Source: an uncultured Bacteroidia bacterium
Lineage (GTDB): Bacteria; Bacteroidota; Bacteroidia; Bacteroidales; UBA932
Reading direction: 5' to 3'
Assembly (NCBI GenBank): GCA_902784965.1
Contig: CACZWU010000022.1
Coordinates: forward strand, 1-61,029
DNA: 61,029 bases
Shown here piece after piece: positions 24,424 through 51,531 of this stretch. The position numbers and the translations under genes were made by a program. The notes under the pieces are model-generated. The model made no database searches, was not told where the DNA came from, and saw only the letters and a list, made by a program, of their open reading frames with translations. Positions within the stretch are counted from its first letter, which is position 1. Every line of letters starts with the position of its first letter.

Positions 24424-26064
24424 ATGTCTGCTACCACGCAACAAACAACCACTTTGCGGGATTCGGCAACCATGCGCTGGATCGCGCTGCTCCTGCTGGC
24501 GCTGGGCATGTTCTGCGCCTACATCTTCATGGATATCCTCTCGCCCATCAAAGACCTGATGGAATCCACCCGCGGGTGGGATTCCAAGGCCTTCGGCACG
24601 ATGCAGGGATCCGAAACCTTCCTCAACGTTTTTGTGTTCTTCCTGATCTTCGCCGGCATCATCCTTGACAAGATGGGCGTGCGCTTCACCGCCGTCCTGT
24701 CGGGCGTGGTAATGTTGGTGGGCGGCCTGATCAAGTATTACGCCGTGAGCGAGGCTTTCTTCGGTTCGGGTCTCGAAACCTGGTTTACCAACAACCTGAA
24801 CTGGCACACCGGTATCGGCTTTATCGACAATATCCTGCCTTTCTATCACGGGATGCCCGCTTCGGCGAAAATGGCGGGACTGGGTTTCATGATCTTCGGC
24901 TGCGGCTGTGAGATGGCCGGTATCACGGTCAGCCGCGGTATCGTCAAATGGTTCAAAGGCCGTGAGACGGCCCTGGCCATGGGCTCCGAGATGGCGCTCG
25001 CACGCCTGGGCGTGGCCACCTGCATGATTTTCTCGCCGTATTTTGCCAAGCTGGGCGGCGTGATCGACGTGTCTCGTTCCGTGGCCTTCGGCGTTGTGCT
25101 CCTGTGCATCGCCCTGATTATGTTCATCACTTATTTCTTCATGGACAAGAAGCTCGACAGCCAGACCGGCGAGGCCGAGGAGAAGGACGACCCGTTCAAG
25201 GTCAAGGACATCGGCAAGATTCTCTCGAGTCTCGGTTTCTGGCTCGTCGCCCTGCTCTGCGTACTCTACTACAGCGCCATCTTCCCGTTCCAGAAATATG
25301 CGGTCAACATGCTGCAGTGCAACCTGACCCTCACGGAACCGGCTGCGGGCAGCTTCTGGGCCGGTGAAAGTGTGACCATCATCCAGTATATCATCATGCT
25401 GGTAGTGGCTGCCTGCGCGTTCTCGAGCAACTTCATCAAAAAGAACAAAGCCCTGAAGACCGGACTGATGGCTGTGGCGATCGTAGCCCTGGTGGTCTAC
25501 TGCTACATGGGCTTCCAGCGTGGTACCGCCGAAACCATCTTCGCCGTGTTCCCGCTGCTGGCCGTGGCCATTACCCCGATTCTCGGCAGCTATGTGGATC
25601 ACAAGGGCAAGGCTGCTTCGATGCTGGTCCTCGGCTCCCTGCTACTGATCATCTGCCACCTGACCTTCGCCTTCGTCCTGCCGCTGTTCAAGGGCAACGC
25701 CGTGGGCGGCACGATCGTGGCCTATGCCACCATCCTGGTCCTCGGCTCCTCGTTCTCGCTGGTGCCCGCGGCCCTCTGGCCTTCCGTTCCGAAGCTGGTC
25801 GACGAGAAGATCATCGGTTCGGCCTACGCTCTCATCTTCTGGATCCAGAACATCGGCCTGTGGCTCTTCCCGATCCTCATCGGCAACGTGCTGACCCGTA
25901 CCAATGCTCCCGGCACGCCTCCCGACGAACTCAACTACACCTGGGCCCTCGTCATGCTGGCCTGCCTCGGCGTGGCCGCCCTGCTCATCGGCCTCTACCT
26001 GAAGGTGGTCGACCGCAAAAAGCATCTCGGCCTGGAGGAACCCAACATCAAGCTATCCAAATAG
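24424..26064 (+). CDS. Major facilitator superfamily transporter (first of a tandem pair)
   Basis: The 546-residue protein has about 12 predicted membrane helices, starting at WIALLLLALGMFCAYIFMD. MFS-like loops are visible (GIILDKMGVRFTAVLSG). A late segment, WPSVPKLVDEKIIGSAYALIFWIQNIGLWLFPILIG, resembles MFSD1-type peptide transporters, but the substrate is unknown. An extra hydrophobic pair around residues 325-360 makes it about 90 residues longer than its neighbour. It lies 9 bases before the second copy and shares a promoter with it. The ATG at 24424 is preferred because the first helix follows directly. Confidence 0.88.
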   Translation: MSATTQQTTTLRDSATMRWIALLLLALGMFCAYIFMDILSPIKDLMESTRGWDSKAFGTMQGSETFLNVFVFFLIFAGIILDKMGVRFTAVLSGVVMLVGGLIKYYAVSEAFFGSGLETWFTNNLNWHTGIGFIDNILPFYHGMPASAKMAGLGFMIFGCGCEMAGITVSRGIVKWFKGRETALAMGSEMALARLGVATCMIFSPYFAKLGGVIDVSRSVAFGVVLLCIALIMFITYFFMDKKLDSQTGEAEEKDDPFKVKDIGKILSSLGFWLVALLCVLYYSAIFPFQKYAVNMLQCNLTLTEPAAGSFWAGESVTIIQYIIMLVVAACAFSSNFIKKNKALKTGLMAVAIVALVVYCYMGFQRGTAETIFAVFPLLAVAITPILGSYVDHKGKAASMLVLGSLLLIICHLTFAFVLPLFKGNAVGGTIVAYATILVLGSSFSLVPAALWPSVPKLVDEKIIGSAYALIFWIQNIGLWLFPILIGNVLTRTNAPGTPPDELNYTWALVMLACLGVAALLIGLYLKVVDRKKHLGLEEPNIKLSK

Positions 26065-26073
26065 TATTGCGAT

Positions 26074-27444
26074 ATGACAACTGAAACCAAGTCCCTGAAG
26101 ACAAGCAAGATCGCCTGTTGGCTGGCGCTTGCCTGCCTGGTGGTGCCGATGTTCGGCTCCTACTTCTTCGACGATATGTTTTCCACCGTGTCGCAGATCT
26201 TCAAGAATCCGGAGATGCTGCAGCTCGGCTGGAACTCCCAGCAGTTCGGCTTCTATGCCGGCGGCTATTCGTTCCTCTGTGTATGGGGCGGCCTGATCAT
26301 CTGCGGCATCCTGCTCGACAAGTTCGGCGTACGGATCATCGGTTCCGTGTTCGTAGGACTGATGGTGATCGGTGCAGCCATCGTCACCTGGGCCATCTCG
26401 ACGCCCGGCCTGGCGCCCGGCACTTCGCTGACCATCGCCTATATCGGCTGCACGTTGTTCGGACTGGGCAGTGAAATTGCCGGCGTGGCGGTCACCCGTT
26501 CCATTGCCAAATGGTTCAAAGGCAAGAATGTGGCACTGGCCATGGGCCTGCAGCTGGCCATCGCCCGTATCGGCACGGGCCTGGCCATGCTGCTTGCGCC
26601 GGTATTGGTACTCAAGAATCATGTGGAAGGAACGATGTACACGCTCTCCGAAACCAACAAGCCGGCCATCGTGGGTCTGACGCTCCTGTTCATCGGTGCC
26701 ATCCTCTGGGCCATCTTCGTGGCCATGGATGCCAAATACGACCGGCAGGAAGGTATCGCCACGCAGCGCGGCGAGGTGAAGGAGGAAGACAAGTTCAAGT
26801 TCTCCGACATCTGGAAAGTGCTCAGCAATCCGCGTTTCATCATGATCGCCCTGCTGTGCGTGTTCTTCTACTGCTGCGTCATCAGCTTCAAGAAATTCGG
26901 CACCTCGATCATCATCCCGCGCTTCGGCCTGGATGCGTCTACGGCCTCCGTGATGATATCGATGATCGCCTTCGCCCCCGTGATCTTCACGCCGCTCTTC
27001 GGTGCGCTGGTCGACAAGGTGGGCAAGGCGACGACCTGGATGATCATCGGAGCCGTCCTGGTGCTTTGTGCACACCTGATCATCGGTTTTGCGCCGGGTG
27101 TTCCGTTCTACGGCTACCTGTCCATCATCTTCCTGGGCATCGGCTATTCACTGGTTCCTTCCGCCATGTGGCCGACCGTTCCGAAGATCATTCCCGAGAA
27201 GAACCTCGGTACGGCTTACTCGATGATCTACTGGATCCAGAACATGGGCATGATGCTCGTCCCGATCTTCGTCGGCCGCATCATGACGAAATACGTTGGC
27301 GATGACATCGCTGCCGCCGTCCACTCCGAGTACATCTTCGTATCCCTCGGCGTGGTGGCCATCACCGTTGCGGTCTGCCTCTACTTCAACTCGAAGCAGC
27401 ACCCAGAACTCAAGATCGACCGGCCGTCGAAAGAATCGGCGTAA
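26074..27444 (+). CDS. Major facilitator superfamily transporter (second of a tandem pair)
   Basis: The 456-residue, 12-helix MFS protein is paralogous to the gene before it: GILLDKFGVRIIGSVF, SRSIAKWFKGKN-like loops and MWPTVPKIIPEKNLGTAYSMIYWIQNMGMMLVPIFVG all have counterparts there. The likely history is a tandem duplication followed by divergence, possibly of substrate. The resemblance to MFSD1-type carriers is by motif only. It ends 4 bases before a strong terminator. Confidence 0.88.
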   Translation: MTTETKSLKTSKIACWLALACLVVPMFGSYFFDDMFSTVSQIFKNPEMLQLGWNSQQFGFYAGGYSFLCVWGGLIICGILLDKFGVRIIGSVFVGLMVIGAAIVTWAISTPGLAPGTSLTIAYIGCTLFGLGSEIAGVAVTRSIAKWFKGKNVALAMGLQLAIARIGTGLAMLLAPVLVLKNHVEGTMYTLSETNKPAIVGLTLLFIGAILWAIFVAMDAKYDRQEGIATQRGEVKEEDKFKFSDIWKVLSNPRFIMIALLCVFFYCCVISFKKFGTSIIIPRFGLDASTASVMISMIAFAPVIFTPLFGALVDKVGKATTWMIIGAVLVLCAHLIIGFAPGVPFYGYLSIIFLGIGYSLVPSAMWPTVPKIIPEKNLGTAYSMIYWIQNMGMMLVPIFVGRIMTKYVGDDIAAAVHSEYIFVSLGVVAITVAVCLYFNSKQHPELKIDRPSKESA

Positions 27445-41223: not shown

Positions 41224-42141
41224 TTAGTCCTGAATATATCCGAATTTCTTGAGCATTTTCTTGTCTTCCCGCCAATTGGGCTCCACCTTCACGAAAACCT
41301 GCAGGAATACTTTCTTCTGAAAGAAATCTTCCATCTCGAGGCGGGCCTGCGTGGCCACGCGCTTGAGCGCACTGCCGCCTTTTCCGATGATGATGCCTTT
41401 CTGTGAGTCGCGCATCACGTTGATGACGGCCCCAATGTCGTAGCGTTCTTCTCCTTCCTTGAACTGCTCGATCACCACCTCGGTGCAGTAAGGGATTTCC
41501 TTGTCGTAGTTCTCCAGGATCTTCTCGCGGATGATCTCCGAGGCGAAGAAACGCATGCTCTTGTCGGTGAACTGCTCCTTGTCGAACCACGGCGGGCTGA
41601 CCGGCAGTTTCGCGATGATGCTGTCGAGGATGCCTTCCAGGTTGAATTTTTCCTTGGCGGAGACGGGGAAGATCTCGGCGGCGGGCACCAAGGCCTGCCA
41701 CTCCTCGATGAGCCGCAGTACGGTGGGCTGGTCGCTCAGGTCGATCTTGTTGAGCACGATGATCACGGGGCAGGTGAGTTTCTGCAGTTTCTCAATATAC
41801 TCCGCGTTCTTGTCTTTCTTCTCAACGACGTCGGTCACGTAGAGGATGACGTCGGCGTCGCCGATGGCCACGTCCACGAAATCGAGCATGCTCTGCTGCA
41901 GGGCATAGTTGGGCTTGAGGATGCCCGGCGTATCGGAGAAGACAATCTGCCAGTCCTCGCCGTTGACGATGCCCATGATGCGGTGGCGGGTGGTCTGGGC
42001 CTTGGATGTCACGATGGAGAGATTTTCGCCCACCAGCGCGTTCATCAGCGTCGACTTGCCGACGTTCGGATTGCCGATGATGTTGACAAATCCGGCGCGG
42101 TGCTGCTGCCGGGGTTGTTTCTGTGTCTGCTTGTCCATCAT
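41224..42141 (-). CDS. era: GTPase Era
   Basis: The 305-residue GTPase helps 16S rRNA maturation and 30S assembly. It has the G1 loop GNPNVGKST, the G3 DTPGI, the G4 NKIDLSD and a C-terminal KH domain (GKGGSALKRVATQARLEMEDFFQKKVFLQVFVKVEPNWR), all in order. Its start overlaps the rluB stop by 4 bases. Confidence 0.97.
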   Translation of the reverse strand: MMDKQTQKQPRQQHRAGFVNIIGNPNVGKSTLMNALVGENLSIVTSKAQTTRHRIMGIVNGEDWQIVFSDTPGILKPNYALQQSMLDFVDVAIGDADVILYVTDVVEKKDKNAEYIEKLQKLTCPVIIVLNKIDLSDQPTVLRLIEEWQALVPAAEIFPVSAKEKFNLEGILDSIIAKLPVSPPWFDKEQFTDKSMRFFASEIIREKILENYDKEIPYCTEVVIEQFKEGEERYDIGAVINVMRDSQKGIIIGKGGSALKRVATQARLEMEDFFQKKVFLQVFVKVEPNWREDKKMLKKFGYIQD

Positions 42142-43037
42142 TCGAAAGCCCCCATTTTCAGCAGTCCGATCTCTTTCTCGTCGAGGAAGCGCCAGGCGCC
42201 GCGGCGCAGGTTCTTCTTGGTCAGGCCGGCGAAATACACGCGGTCGAGTTTCTTGACTTTGTAGCCCAGGTGTTCGAAGATGCGGCGTACGATGCGGTTG
42301 CGGCCCGAATGGATCTCCAGGCCCACCTGCGTCTTGTCGCCCTCCACGTAGGAGAGGGCGTCGGCGGCGATGGGGCCGTCCTCCAGTTCGATGCCCGAGA
42401 GAATGGCGTCGAAATCTTCTTTCCGCAGGTTCTTGTCGAGAGTGGCGTGGTAGATTTTGCGCACCTGGTGCTTGGGATGGGTGAGCTTGTCGGCCAGGTC
42501 ACCATCGTTGGTGAACAGCAGCACGCCCGTGGTGGCTTTGTCGAGCCGTCCTACCGGGTACACGCGTTCCGGGCACATACTCTTGGAAATGAGGTCCATC
42601 ACCGTGCGGTCGGCGTGGGGGTCGGAGAGGGTGGTGACGAAATCCTTGGGCTTGTTCATCACCAGGTAGACTTTCTTCTCGCCCTTGATGCGGGAGCCGT
42701 TGAAGCGGATTTCATCCTTGCTCGGGTCGACCTTGGTGCCGAGTTCCGTGACGCGGACGCCGTTGACGCTCACCAGTCCGTTTTCGATGAACGTATCGGC
42801 TTCCCGGCGCGAGCAGATGCCGGAGTTGGCGATGTATTTGTTGAGGCGCACGAGCCCGTCGTCTTCTACGGGTCGGGTCTGTTTCTTCGGTTTGGTCTTG
42901 TCGGTATAGGTCTTGCGGGCAGGCCGCTTTTCGCGTTCGTCCTTGTCGTAGGAGCGGCGCGGTTTCGCACTGTGGGTCGGCGACGTCTGTCGATTCTCAT
43001 CGGTTTTGCGACGGACGTATGGTCTCTTGTTTTCCAT
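42138..43037 (-). CDS. RluB-type 23S rRNA pseudouridine synthase
   Basis: The 299-residue protein has a basic, low-complexity N-terminal extension (about residues 1-90, starting MENKRPYVRRKTDENRQ). An S4 domain follows (VRLNKYIANSGICSRREADTFIENGLVSVNG). The RsuA/RluB catalytic domain has YPVGRLDKATTGVLLFTNDGDLA, where Asp in GRLD is the catalytic residue. It isomerises uridine in ribosomal RNA. The first 12 codons are repeated 958 bases upstream as the start of the lipoprotein frame, so this gene has been separated from its old promoter by that insertion. Confidence 0.93.
   Translation of the reverse strand: MENKRPYVRRKTDENRQTSPTHSAKPRRSYDKDEREKRPARKTYTDKTKPKKQTRPVEDDGLVRLNKYIANSGICSRREADTFIENGLVSVNGVRVTELGTKVDPSKDEIRFNGSRIKGEKKVYLVMNKPKDFVTTLSDPHADRTVMDLISKSMCPERVYPVGRLDKATTGVLLFTNDGDLADKLTHPKHQVRKIYHATLDKNLRKEDFDAILSGIELEDGPIAADALSYVEGDKTQVGLEIHSGRNRIVRRIFEHLGYKVKKLDRVYFAGLTKKNLRRGAWRFLDEKEIGLLKMGAFE
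43002..43037. repeat. 36-bp direct repeat, copy at the rluB start
   Basis: This copy covers the first 12 codons of rluB. It matches 43960-43995 in 35 of 36 positions; the one difference is A against C inside the CGTATGG segment. Confidence 0.95.
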
Positions 43038-43092
43038 TCTTACGGATTTGTGATATCTTCAAAAAAACGAAACAATTAGCGCTGAAAGGCTG

Positions 43093-43995
43093 TCAATCAT
43101 CATAGCAAGGGTCATCAGGGTCATTGGTACCACCGCCTCCTCCTTCTCCGATGATAATACTTTCTTCAATCTCTTGATTATAGAAGTCAAGTTCGTTCCA
43201 AGGACAATGCGAACAATAGTAATAACCACTTTCATTTTGCTGGAGATCACAGCCGCATTGAGGGCAGATATAATGACTCCCTTCTTTGGTTTTCAAATCG
43301 CTTAATATTCCATAAGCCTTAAAAATATAATAGTGTAGCCGGAAATCAATGCGTTCGCGAGTATGCTTTGATGTTCCATAATAAAGGTCATCTGTCTTTT
43401 TTCCGAAGGAGTATCGCTGCAATTTGATAATATTACCGTTCAAATCGGAATAGATTTCCAGTCCGGAGAAGTCTTCTCGAAATCCATTATTATGGAATCC
43501 CCTATAGAGTTCATCTTCGTAGGAATCCTTATATTTGTCCCGAGAATCCCGAAAAGGAATGAAAAAGTGGTTGTATACCCCTGTGTCGCCATTCTCCAGT
43601 GATTTGATAACTGTGATGGAATGATGACAACGGGTTAGGTAAAAACCCTGCCCATCTTGACTCAATACAAAGTATCGTCTTTTTTCGGAGACAGGGATGT
43701 CAATAGACTCTACTTCGTCAGTTTTGGTTGGCAAAGCCATATTCCAGATAGGAGCAAACGACACTCGATAAAACATATTTGACTTTTCTTTGCCAGAAGG
43801 CGATTTTGTTATCTCCTGAGAGATAGCGTCGTCAAAAAGGATGCGGGCCTCGGCAATGGATAAGGATGAATTGTCGTAGACTTTCTCATTTTCGGCAGAA
43901 CACCCCCAAAGCCAGAGAATGGAAATGAAAAATAGTTGGGCTATGTACATATTATTGGGGGTTTTGCGACGGCCGTATGGTCTCTTGTTTTCCAT
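43093..43995 (-). CDS. AT-rich lipoprotein with a C-terminal zinc ribbon, inserted at the rluB start
   Basis: The open frame of 300 codons starts with the captured rluB codons (MENKRPYGRRKT) and then PNN. The gene's own start is probably the ATG at 43948-43950. It gives a lipoprotein signal (MYIAQLFFISILWLWGC) and 285 residues. The body is rich in Asp, Tyr and Phe and matches no family I recognise. Near the end is a zinc ribbon, CPQC at about 229-232 and CSHC at about 246-249, then a glycine run and an acidic tail. GC content is far below that of its neighbours, which suggests transfer. It stands between 36-bp direct repeats. Function unknown. Confidence 0.65.
   Translation of the reverse strand: MENKRPYGRRKTPNNMYIAQLFFISILWLWGCSAENEKVYDNSSLSIAEARILFDDAISQEITKSPSGKEKSNMFYRVSFAPIWNMALPTKTDEVESIDIPVSEKRRYFVLSQDGQGFYLTRCHHSITVIKSLENGDTGVYNHFFIPFRDSRDKYKDSYEDELYRGFHNNGFREDFSGLEIYSDLNGNIIKLQRYSFGKKTDDLYYGTSKHTRERIDFRLHYYIFKAYGILSDLKTKEGSHYICPQCGCDLQQNESGYYYCSHCPWNELDFYNQEIEESIIIGEGGGGGTNDPDDPCYDD
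43960..43995. repeat. 36-bp direct repeat, copy at the start of the inserted frame
   Basis: The second copy of the rluB 5' end, in the same orientation, 958 bases from the first. The sequence just upstream (43996-44050) holds a -7-like box and probably is the original rluB leader. Confidence 0.95.
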
Positions 43996-44024: not shown

Positions 44025-44032
44025 CAAAATTA
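44025..44032 (-). promoter_or_regulatory. Candidate -7 element upstream of the inserted lipoprotein gene
   Basis: TAATTTTG on the minus strand, 29 bases before the ATG at 43995, matches TAnnTTTG. A TTTG lies only 8 bases further up, too close for a normal -33. It may be the ancestral rluB-era-parC promoter. Confidence 0.35.
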
Positions 44033-44088
44033 GTTAAAACCAAAGGAATTTCCTATTTTTGAAAGTCAAATCTTCTGGAGGATCTGTG

Positions 44089-45255
44089 ATGAGAGATTTT
44101 TACCTGTTCGCCCTGGACGCTTTTTCGACCAACCGCCGCCGTTTTCTGCTCACGGTGGCCATTATCGCCATTGGCGTGGCCTCCCTGGTCGGCATCGAAA
44201 CGGCCGTGGACGTGCTGACCAGCCAGGTGGTCGGCAGTTTCGACAAACTGGGCGCCGGGCTGCTGACCATCCGACCCAGGCCCGACGCCCCTCCCATCGG
44301 TTTTCGGCAGGCATACGCCTTCCGTCATTCCGGGCATGACCCGGCATCTCGTGTCACTGTCTGGACCCCCATGCAGGACGCAGCCATCGTCCGTGGCGGC
44401 GGCCGTACGACCGATCCGGTGGTCCATGTGCTCGCCGTCGACGAGAGTTACCTGCTGGTCCAGGGATTGCGGCTGGCCGGCGGCCGCCACTTTTCGCCTT
44501 ACGAAGTGGAAGGTCATTCCCCGGTGGCACTGCTGGGCGACAACGTCCGTCGACGGCTCTACGGCGAAAGTGACGGGCTGGGGGAGATGGTGTCGGTCGA
44601 TGGCCTGCGACTGCAGGTCATCGGGGTGCTGGAGCGGCAGGGTGCCGTATTCGGCACAGGACTCGACGATGCCTTGCTGATGCCCATCAGTTCCAGTGCT
44701 GAAGATTGTCAGATCACCCTTCGCGCGGCGCAGGGACATCTGCACCCGGCGATGCTGCAAGCCGGCAGCCGGATGGCCACGATCCGGCGCCTTCCGCTGG
44801 GAGCAGAACCCGATTTCGAGATCGTGGAGGCCGACGGTGCCGCGTCGACGCTGGCATCCCTTCGGTCGAAGCTCTCGCTGGCGGCGCTGGCCATCGGCCT
44901 GGTGACGATGCTCGGGGCGGCGGTCGGCCTGATGAACAGTCTGTTGGTCTCCGTCAAGGAGCGGACGCGCGAAATCGGGACGCGGCGGGCGCTGGGCGCC
45001 CGTGCACGCGACATCGCGCGTCAGTTTCTGGCCGAGGCCCTGCTCATTGGCCTGCTGGGCAGTGCCGCCGGCGTGGTGCTGGGACTGCTGCTGGGCAATC
45101 TGGTGGCGCTTTCGCTCGAAGGCTGTTTCACGGCGCCCTGGGGCTGGATGGCCGCCGGTGTTCTCCTTGCCGCCGTCGTCAGCCTCTCCTCCGGTCTTCT
45201 TCCCGCAAGAAGAGCCGCCCGCCTCGATCCCATCGAAGCCCTCCGCAGCCTCTAG
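44089..45255 (+). CDS. MacB/FtsX-type ABC transporter permease
   Basis: The 388-residue protein has one N-terminal membrane helix (about 20-40), a periplasmic MacB core domain (about 45-250) and three C-terminal FtsX helices (ALAIGLVTMLGAAVGLMNSLL; ALLIGLLGSAAGVVLGLLLG; WMAAGVLLAAVVSLSSGL). The family's VKERTREIGTRRALGARARDI loop and the end ARRAARLDPIEALRSL are present. The start at 44089 has a GGAGG (44077-44081) at proper distance, unusual for this genome; the frame extends to 44059. No ATPase gene is adjacent, so its partner lies elsewhere. Residues about 79-88 (RHSGHDPASR) are encoded by a palindromic repeat. A -7-like TATTTTTG is at 44054-44061. Confidence 0.88.
   Translation: MRDFYLFALDAFSTNRRRFLLTVAIIAIGVASLVGIETAVDVLTSQVVGSFDKLGAGLLTIRPRPDAPPIGFRQAYAFRHSGHDPASRVTVWTPMQDAAIVRGGGRTTDPVVHVLAVDESYLLVQGLRLAGGRHFSPYEVEGHSPVALLGDNVRRRLYGESDGLGEMVSVDGLRLQVIGVLERQGAVFGTGLDDALLMPISSSAEDCQITLRAAQGHLHPAMLQAGSRMATIRRLPLGAEPDFEIVEADGAASTLASLRSKLSLAALAIGLVTMLGAAVGLMNSLLVSVKERTREIGTRRALGARARDIARQFLAEALLIGLLGSAAGVVLGLLLGNLVALSLEGCFTAPWGWMAAGVLLAAVVSLSSGLLPARRAARLDPIEALRSL
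44323..44350. repeat. Palindromic repeat element inside the permease coding sequence
   Basis: CGTCATTCCGGGCATGACCC and the following CGGCATCTC resemble the intergenic repeat at 27482-27550. The core is the inverted repeat CCGGG-CATGA-CCCGG (44330-44334 with 44340-44344). It is translated in frame as RHSGHDPASR. Confidence 0.7.
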
Positions 45256-50733: not shown

Positions 50734-51531
50734 CTACCAATTTTTCTGTTTCTGTTTTGATTTGAGCTTTGCGGCTTTCTCTTTCTTGACCTTGTCCTGG
50801 GTCTTGTCTTCCTGGGCCTGGATGGCCTGCAGCATCTGCTGGGCGGCTTGCGGCGTTATCTGGGGCTGCTGTCCCTGCTGTGGCTGCCGGTCCTGGTTCT
50901 GATCCTTCTGATCCTGATTCTGGTCTTGCTGGTCCTTGTTCTGATCGTTCTGATCCTGATTCTGGTCCTGCTGATCCTTGTTCTGGTCGTTCTGGTCGTT
51001 CTGATCGTTCTGATTCTGGTCCTGATTCTGCTGATCCTGGTTTTGATCCTGATTCTGATCCTGGTTCTGGTCGTTGTTGCCACCGCCGCCGTTCTGCTGC
51101 TGGTCTTCCAGCATCTTTTGGGCGTAGGCCAGGTTGGCCTTGGTCTCCTGGTCGTCCGGGTTGCGGCGCAACGCATTCTTGTAGGCGTCGATGGCGCCCT
51201 GCCAGTTGCGCTGTTTCAGCAGGGAATTGCCCATATTGTGGAAGGCGTCGGCTCCGTATTTCCCTTTGGCGAGCGAGTCGATGCCGGCCTTGTAATAGCG
51301 GTCGGCCTCGGAGTAGTTCTCCATCCGGTAGTAGTTGTTGCCCAGGTTGTAGTCGGCGGTCACGGAGGTGGAATCCGCCACCAGCGCCTTCTTGTAGTCG
51401 ATTTCCGCTTCGGAATATTTCTCTTTCTTGAACTGCCGGTTGCCGTGGCGCACGCTCTTGCGTTCGCTCTGGGCGAAGCAGACTCCCGTGCAAAGCACGA
51501 CCGACAGGATGACAAGCAAATATCGTTTCAT
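50734..51531 (-). CDS. batC: BatC, TPR protein with a long Asn/Asp/Gln tract
   Basis: The 265-residue protein has a signal peptide (LLVILSVVLCTGVCFAQ). TPR repeats at about 30-150 include RQFKKEKYSEAEIDYKKALVAD, TADYNLGNNYYRMENYSEADRYYKAG and AFHNMGNSLLKQRNWQGAIDAYKNAL. A low-complexity tract of DQNQ, NDQN and KDQQ units spans about 153-220, and the tail is lysine-rich (KLKSKQKQKNW). BatC belongs to the envelope Bat complex; the TPRs probably hold its partners. The repeat tract (about 50870-51075 in DNA) is prone to length change. Confidence 0.88.
   Translation of the reverse strand: MKRYLLVILSVVLCTGVCFAQSERKSVRHGNRQFKKEKYSEAEIDYKKALVADSTSVTADYNLGNNYYRMENYSEADRYYKAGIDSLAKGKYGADAFHNMGNSLLKQRNWQGAIDAYKNALRRNPDDQETKANLAYAQKMLEDQQQNGGGGNNDQNQDQNQDQNQDQQNQDQNQNDQNDQNDQNKDQQDQNQDQNDQNKDQQDQNQDQKDQNQDRQPQQGQQPQITPQAAQQMLQAIQAQEDKTQDKVKKEKAAKLKSKQKQKNW

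What the first reader, a model, noticed from the sequence alone, without database searches (positions are those of the whole stretch)
43002..43995. AT-rich gene inserted between 36-bp copies of the rluB start
The first 36 bases of rluB are repeated 958 bases upstream with one mismatch, and between them lies a low-GC lipoprotein gene. The upstream copy keeps the old leader and start codon and reads in frame into the new gene; the downstream copy restores an intact rluB. The design would let a cargo gene use a housekeeping promoter and start while rebuilding the target, like integration at a tRNA end but with a protein start codon. No integrase is in the insert, so the enzyme would act in trans.
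Basis: partly seen in the sequence, partly recalled or inferred. Interest (0 to 1): 0.75.

Follow-up and report, generated by a model that had tools for sequence, protein, structure and literature searches.

The report
Toxin-carrier gene between duplicated rluB starts
A Bacteroidales-type bacterium has a foreign lipoprotein gene wedged between two copies of the first 36 bases of a housekeeping gene, most likely left when a captured fragment of a relative's DNA carrying a toxin-type module recombined into the chromosome through a short shared gene end, rather than by a dedicated start-codon-targeting enzyme.

Summary
In detail: rluB codons 1-12 (43002-43037) recur at 43960-43995, 35/36 identical, around an AT-rich lipoprotein ORF that starts in the upstream copy. 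Relatives are empty sites; G016's single copy equals the upstream copy 36/36. The upstream copy keeps the conserved leader; the downstream rluB has an unrelated one. The cargo is the N-terminal half of a lipoprotein family without a Pfam or NCBIfam match, whose longer relatives have differing C-terminal parts (polymorphic-toxin-like). G034 carries what looks like the tail of that gene plus its partner near rluB. Gene-END duplications (74-87 bp) flank or adjoin such modules elsewhere in the bacterial family, and flank an RHS gene after rimM; 5 of 42 regions with this family show a pair, so it is not the rule. Target sequences differ, and at rimM the insert ends in a diverged relic of the far-side gene, so the donor probably carried its module at that locus. 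This favours host recombination of a captured fragment (single crossover after circularisation, or homology-facilitated illegitimate recombination) over a start-codon-specific integrase. Relic support rests on one of three loci tested. No reads, donor, sister strain or structure was available.

The parts
42138..43037 (-). rluB (S4 + pseudouridine synthase), intact reading frame, starts in the downstream copy
43002..43037 (-). downstream 36-bp copy = rluB codons 1-12; one change (GTC for GGC) from the relatives compared
43038..43092 (-). 55-nt leader now in front of rluB; no TAnnTTTG element, no significant similarity to the upstream leader
43093..43995 (-). fused ORF, 300 aa: 12 rluB codons, then PNN, then the lipoprotein
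43093..43950 (-). lipoprotein part (family 'A' carrier domain, CxxC zinc-ribbon-like, GGGGG linker); the C-terminal part of longer relatives is missing
43960..43995 (-). upstream 36-bp copy; identical to the single copy of G016
44025..44032 (-). conserved promoter-like TAATTTTG of the ancestral rluB leader
   Evidence: motif meaning recalled
44086..45255 (+). divergent MacB/FtsX-type permease, also the gene on the far side in the empty sites

Best explanation
The insert is part of a polymorphic-toxin-like module that arrived by horizontal transfer from a relative carrying it next to rluB. Inferred steps: a donor fragment running from the 5' part of the lipoprotein gene to codon 12 of the donor's rluB entered the cell, its ends were joined (AAAACC to CCCAATAATATG), and one crossover in the 36 bp shared with the resident rluB start integrated it. 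Homology-facilitated illegitimate recombination, with the rluB side homologous and the other side joined at random, would give the same product. Either way the resident leader and 36 bp stay upstream, now fused in frame to the cargo, and the donor leader plus an intact rluB follow. The host's recombination machinery would suffice. Shown: the anatomy, the empty sites, gene-end duplications around some similar modules, and one donor-flank relic. Inferred: the transfer route, the order of events, expression of the fusion, and antagonism as the module's role.
For: Empty sites with a single copy, upstream copy ancestral. Like anatomy around related or analogous modules: rimM 3' end, 77 bp at 98.7%, around an RHS gene and a small lipoprotein in G019; ABC-F 3' end, 74 bp at 94.6%, around A plus a neighbour in G025:C66, with a 31-bp third copy beyond a hicA-type gene and G019 as the contiguous empty site; DNA polymerase III delta 3' end, 77 bp at 92.2%, around two A genes, small ORFs and an O-antigen-ligase-type gene in G130; an 87-bp small-gene 3' end spanning A in G295, and in G149 a 69-bp pair spanning A with an 81-bp gene-end pair beside it. 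In G019 the insert ends with a relic of the phosphomannomutase 3' end: 26/32 to its own, 27/34 to G025's, 0 of 500 shuffles each. The targets share no evident core by eye. In an E. coli conjugation assay partial target duplication was seen in 56 of 60 clones, read by the authors as single crossover of a recircularised molecule (PMC3240628, section 12).
Against: Of three other loci tested for a far-flank relic (G019, G130, G025:C66) only G019 shows one; in the window the insert's start against the upstream leader gave nothing (236 of 500 shuffles as good). G028's phosphomannomutase end matched the relic no better than chance (25 of 500). No donor with this leader next to rluB was found. Sliding identity over rluB and the permease shows no clear donor tract. 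Only 5 of 42 A-bearing regions show a pair. 36 bp with a longest exact run of 22 bp is short for host recombination; a passage of PMC2884548 gives about 30 bp as the reported RecA threshold in E. coli. That no pair under 31 bp is listed follows partly from my length cut-offs of 22-28 nt.
Confidence: 0.58

Rival explanations
1. Site-specific integrative element (CIME-like remnant or element mobilised in trans): the 36 bp are attL/attR of an attachment site at the rluB 5' end, like SXT in prfC or islands in dusA, with an integrase lost or elsewhere.
For: Direct repeats flank the insert and rebuild the target reading frame; 5'-end integration that restores a reading frame is documented for a dusA island and for SXT (PMC8409611 passages); decayed elements keeping only attL/attR are described (PMC5704250 passages). 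The rluB start is unusually constant at codon level in the 13 sequences compared. Two species carry parts of a similar module near the rluB start. Four tyrosine recombinases exist elsewhere in the genome.
Against: No recombinase in the insert; repeats at other loci are unrelated in sequence and of other lengths; G034 at rluB and G025 at rimM carry modules without gene-end duplication; the donor-flank relic at rimM.
Confidence: 0.17
2. Insertion with local duplication of the recipient's own DNA (end joining with fill-in, or template switching), with no homologous arm on the incoming DNA.
For: Copies are nearly identical in the window and at rimM (1 mismatch each), while the relic beside the rimM copy differs at 6 of 32 positions from the resident gene end.
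Against: The relic suggests that the donor module sat at the same locus, which random capture does not predict; repeats of 31-87 bp seem long for filled-in ends (judgement).
Confidence: 0.15
3. Misassembly of a metagenome bin at a 36-bp repeat.
For: The window is from a draft assembly of 59 contigs, 78% complete; no reads were available.
Against: Sequence on both sides matches relatives up to the copies; like anatomy recurs in other assemblies; the cargo is a gene family of this bacterial family.
Confidence: 0.05

Closest known systems
Homology-facilitated illegitimate recombination of effector-immunity modules (Vibrio cholerae T6SS arrays, PMC5361080, passages read)
   Same: Antagonism modules added beside older sequence, with one homologous and one illegitimate end proposed
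   Different: Here at housekeeping gene boundaries, with a duplicated gene start fused to the cargo, and not in a T6SS cluster; the classical process usually deletes recipient DNA (PMC3240628 passages)
Single crossover of a recircularised fragment during E. coli conjugation (PMC3240628, section 12 and passages read)
   Same: Foreign DNA flanked by a partial duplication of the target gene end
   Different: There 109-950 bp in a laboratory cross; here 36 bp (74-87 bp elsewhere), inferred from sequence
5'-end integrative elements: dusA islands and SXT in prfC (PMC8409611, passages read)
   Same: Insertion at the 5' end of a housekeeping gene whose reading frame is restored
   Different: Those carry an integrase and give the target a new promoter; here no integrase in the insert, and the cargo takes the old promoter region
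CIME, decayed element with attL/attR only (PMC5704250, passages read)
   Same: Repeat-flanked segment without recombination genes
   Different: No related intact element found, no shared core, repeats differ at each locus
Polymorphic toxins (PMC3482391) and SitA lipoprotein toxins (PMC5562445), both seen in search listings only
   Same: Relatives of the cargo have a constant lipoprotein N-terminus and differing C-terminal parts
   Different: No Pfam or NCBIfam match above cut-off for the N-terminal domain; the window copy lacks a C-terminal domain

Membership tests
Site-specific integrative element or CIME | direct repeats flank the insert, single copy in empty sites | tested here: met
Site-specific integrative element or CIME | same core or target in independent insertions | tested here: not met
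   rluB start, rimM, ABC-F and pol III delta 3' ends differ in sequence and length, judged by eye
Site-specific integrative element or CIME | cognate integrase in cis or in the genome | tested here: inconclusive
   none in the insert; four PF00589 genes on other contigs; serine recombinases not searched; genome 78% complete
DNA transposon | terminal inverted repeats, transposase, short target duplication | tested here: not met
   no inverted repeats of 16 nt or more at the insert ends (shorter ones not searched); the only ORF over 100 aa in the insert is the lipoprotein
Fragment capture by host recombination (HFIR or single crossover) | foreign DNA beside a partial duplication of a resident gene | tested here: met
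Fragment capture by host recombination (HFIR or single crossover) | donor carries the module at the same locus | tested here: inconclusive
   relic of the far flank at rimM in G019; none in G130, G025:C66 or the window
Polymorphic toxin | constant N-terminus with variable C-terminal domains across relatives | tested here: met
   kinds of C-terminal part read by eye; 4 of 21 relatives are short like the window copy
Polymorphic toxin | a C-terminal toxin domain in the window copy | tested here: not met
   ORF ends 11 residues after the GGGGG linker; G025's C-terminal part finds nothing in the own genome
Polymorphic toxin | toxic activity and cognate immunity | not testable with these tools
   partner gene B has no Pfam or NCBIfam match

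The most novel reading that the evidence does not exclude
A class of integrase-free mobile antagonism modules in this bacterial family that travel with a short copy of the neighbouring housekeeping gene's end as a portable homology arm, enter at gene starts or stops by host recombination, keep the target usable, and can leave again through the same repeats; at rluB this gives the cargo a borrowed promoter, start codon and charged signal-peptide front.
Probability: 0.2. Interest if true: 0.72.

Novelty: new variant of a known kind. Interest (0 to 1): 0.45.

Why it matters
It offers a sequence-level footprint, gene-end duplication around toxin-type modules at housekeeping gene boundaries, for how interbacterial-antagonism genes may spread among rumen and related Bacteroidales without mobile-element machinery, and a case in which a housekeeping start codon is spliced onto a lipoprotein. 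The lipoprotein family itself (35 of 398 genomes of the bacterial family) has no Pfam or NCBIfam model above cut-off for its constant domain.

Tried and rejected
A start-codon-specific system: not favoured, because the start sequence was found only at rluB in the genus genomes that have it and the clearest other duplications are at gene 3' ends. A transposon: no inverted repeats or transposase seen. A viral home for the cargo: 0 relatives in viral contigs. A repeat at G000:C10 that looked like a second gene-start duplication (L106) is, by eye, a dispersed repeat element. A donor tract in rluB by sliding identity: nothing clear. A shared hairpin in the duplicated ends: the rimM and ABC-F ends fold better than shuffles (z about -3), the rluB and pol III delta ends do not (z 0.27, -0.87). 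Similarity of the 55-nt leader to anything held: the best match outside the window was 18 bases in L098, taken as chance. Structure prediction: the machine was busy at all seven tries, so there is no fold evidence. Solved-structure search: only weak matches, mostly ribosomal zinc-ribbon proteins. PHROGs and PADLOC were not searched.

Rows dropped before counts: repeats of L065, L069, L071, L073, L091 and L093 were set aside as AT-rich, dispersed, paralogous or terminator-like by eye; also a 40-bp pair between the two paralogous A starts of L067, and the 77-bp pair at the contig start and the 33-bp pair of L070. In one search, two AT-rich pairs of L137, the pairs of L232, L234, L235, L238 and L241. 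Thresholds differed between those calls (22 nt at 85%, 28 nt at 80%, 28 nt at 82%), and contig ends cut several regions, so 5 of 42 may be an undercount. G295 and G149 belong to one genus and may share history. The 31-bp third copy in G025:C66 is itself a hairpin and may be an independent terminator-like element.

Full report
Observation. The expected number of such pairs by chance in an i.i.d. sequence of this length is about 4e-11. The DNA between the copies is 40.5% GC, and the ORF has GC3 0.41 against 0.81 for rluB. The fused ORF (43093-43995) reads MENKRPYGRRKT from the rluB start, then PNN, then MYIAQLFFISILWLWGC..., a lipoprotein-type signal (reading by eye).

Empty sites. rluB was found in 37 of 40 genus genomes; 30 matches, one of them the window's own, came back as loci. 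The permease-to-rluB-S4 distance is 271-327 bp in G035, G037, G006, G010, G016 and G018 and 1223 in the window; more distant members vary more, up to 1185, partly through long repetitive rluB N-termini. G016's single copy equals the upstream copy 36/36; G010, G037 and G035 differ from it by 1, 2 and 3, and by one more from the downstream copy. So the upstream copy and its leader are the resident ones. TAnnTTTG lies within 80 nt of the start in all 12 relatives whose start the script placed (13 tried) and in the upstream leader here, but not in the 55-nt leader of the downstream copy.

Host. 

The cargo. The lipoprotein ('A') has relatives in 19 of 299 genomes of the family by single sequence and in 35 of 398 by profile, the own genome included in both. 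In the own genome there is one copy. Of the 21 other loci, 17 have frames of 421-588 codons and 4 are short (290-347, one cut by a contig end): a constant lipoprotein domain, often CxxC pairs and a Gly-rich linker, then in the long ones differing C-terminal parts (some look by eye like EELxHxxQ metallopeptidases, others unlike). Pfam and NCBIfam give only sub-cut-off zinc-ribbon-type matches in the constant domain; one relative has a Divergent InlB B-repeat match over the cut-off in its C-terminal part. The window copy stops 11 residues after its GGGGG linker, and the C-terminal part of G025's relative finds nothing in the own genome, which is 78% complete. So a lost C-terminal part is likely, but short forms also exist elsewhere. 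The three closest relatives (L033, L051, L095) have charged residues near the signal start while the window's Met-Tyr-Ile start has none, so the rluB codons may supply a replacement front (inference).

A second species with debris at rluB. G034 has a permease-to-rluB distance of 1185. Between them lies an ORF related to gene B, which directly follows A in G025 (45% over 152 residues), preceded by NLSNLFDCY-stop, which resembles the end of G025's A, YLSTIFDCYE-stop (by eye). Its insertion point is upstream of the rluB promoter element and no gene-end repeat was found. The window holds the front of A; G034 seems to hold the tail of A plus B.

Like anatomy elsewhere. Searching rimM for empty sites gave a second, 28-codon match in G019. 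In G019, rimM is followed by an ORF that runs off its contig; another contig brings an RHS ORF (RHS core model), a small lipoprotein by eye, a 77-bp copy of the rimM 3' end (98.7%), and the phosphomannomutase end. Taking the two contigs as one insert is inference. Just before the copy lies a relic of the phosphomannomutase 3' end: 26/32 to G019's own, 27/34 to G025's, 0 of 500 shuffles each; G028's end matched no better than chance (25 of 500). In G025 the same rimM boundary carries A-B with no duplication and a 2-bp gap relative to empty G028. In G025:C66 the ABC-F 3' end (74 bp, 94.6%) is repeated past A and a neighbour, and 31 bp of it, itself a hairpin, again past a hicA-type gene; G019 is the contiguous empty site. 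In G130 the 3' end of a DNA polymerase III delta gene (77 bp, 92.2%) is repeated past two A genes, small ORFs and an O-antigen-ligase-type gene. In G295 an 87-bp small-gene 3' end (89.7%) is repeated across A; in G149 a 69-bp pair ending at an ORF start spans A and an 81-bp gene-end pair lies beside it.

Counts and controls. Such pairs occur in 5 of 42 A-bearing regions examined (window, 10 regions, 11, 20): the window and four of the 10 regions; none of the 11 or the 20. Control stretches: 0 pairs in 20 stretches, 400,000 bp, of G018; 6 pairs in 22 stretches, 472,781 bp, of G000, of which I count only the window's as a gene-start pair around low-GC DNA. Samples of G025 (7 pairs, 20 stretches, 276,325 bp) and G019 (9 pairs, 20 stretches, 308,187 bp) were mostly palindromic or dispersed by eye; one more gene-end pair appeared, 109 bp of the 3' end of a gene I read as BlaR-like, in G025:C20. 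The association with A is suggestive, not established.

Mechanism. Three facts weigh against a start-codon-specific integrase: target ends differ in sequence and length, insertions at the same boundaries in two other genomes lack duplication, and the rimM relic suggests that the donor carried its module at the same locus. The product at rimM reads as a filled allele stacked against an empty allele, and the window reads as an empty allele cut at codon 12 stacked against a filled one. Two known routes give this: homology-facilitated illegitimate recombination, proposed for Vibrio effector-immunity arrays (PMC5361080, passages), and single crossover of a recircularised fragment, the authors' reading of 56 of 60 clones in an E. 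coli conjugation assay, with target duplications of 109-950 bp in the 14 sequenced (PMC3240628, section 12). HFIR proper generally comes with a deletion (same paper, passages), so the single-crossover route fits a duplication better. Against both, 36 bp with a longest exact run of 22 is near or below the RecA threshold quoted in PMC2884548 (about 30 bp in E. coli; passages). Site-specific integration at 5' ends is real elsewhere (dusA, prfC; PMC8409611, passages) and stays as a rival at 0.17.

Limits. No reads, no second strain of the species, no donor, no structure (seven tries, machine busy each time). Relic support rests on one of three loci tested. Function of the cargo, of gene B and of the fusion is inference.

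Noticed in passing
window 42990-43037 and rluB loci L003-L014: The rluB 5' end is unusually constant: Tyr, Gly, Thr, Asp, Glu, Asn and Pro codons of the (S/P)YG..TDENR...P stretch are a single codon in all of the 13 sequences (window included) that keep the residue, while the rest of the N-terminus varies in length and sequence. Not tested against a formal null.
   Followed up: partly
L179 4496-4604 and 7533-7641 (G025:C20): A 109-bp, 94.5% copy of the 3' end of a BlaR-like gene (named by eye) lies about 3 kb away, with unrelated ORFs between it and the BlaI-like gene: another gene-end remnant beside accessory genes.
   Followed up: partly
L070 and L072 (G295:C43, G149:C2): Four like genes occur in cyclically permuted order with repeated gene ends between them (by eye), as expected from circular intermediates or tandem duplication.
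   Followed up: no
L063 3744-4509 (G025:C66): A hicA-type toxin gene and its neighbour sit between the second and third copies of the ABC-F gene end.
   Followed up: partly
window 50875-51081: Thirteen overlapping copies of a 51-nt unit, a low-complexity repeat.
   Followed up: no
window 25730-25895 and 27122-27287: A 166-nt direct repeat, 72% identical, 1392 apart.
   Followed up: no
L106 14954-14982 and 15858-15886 (G000:C10): A 29-bp repeat 904 apart, beside what looks like the phosphomannomutase gene, that resembles a dispersed repeat element.
   Followed up: partly
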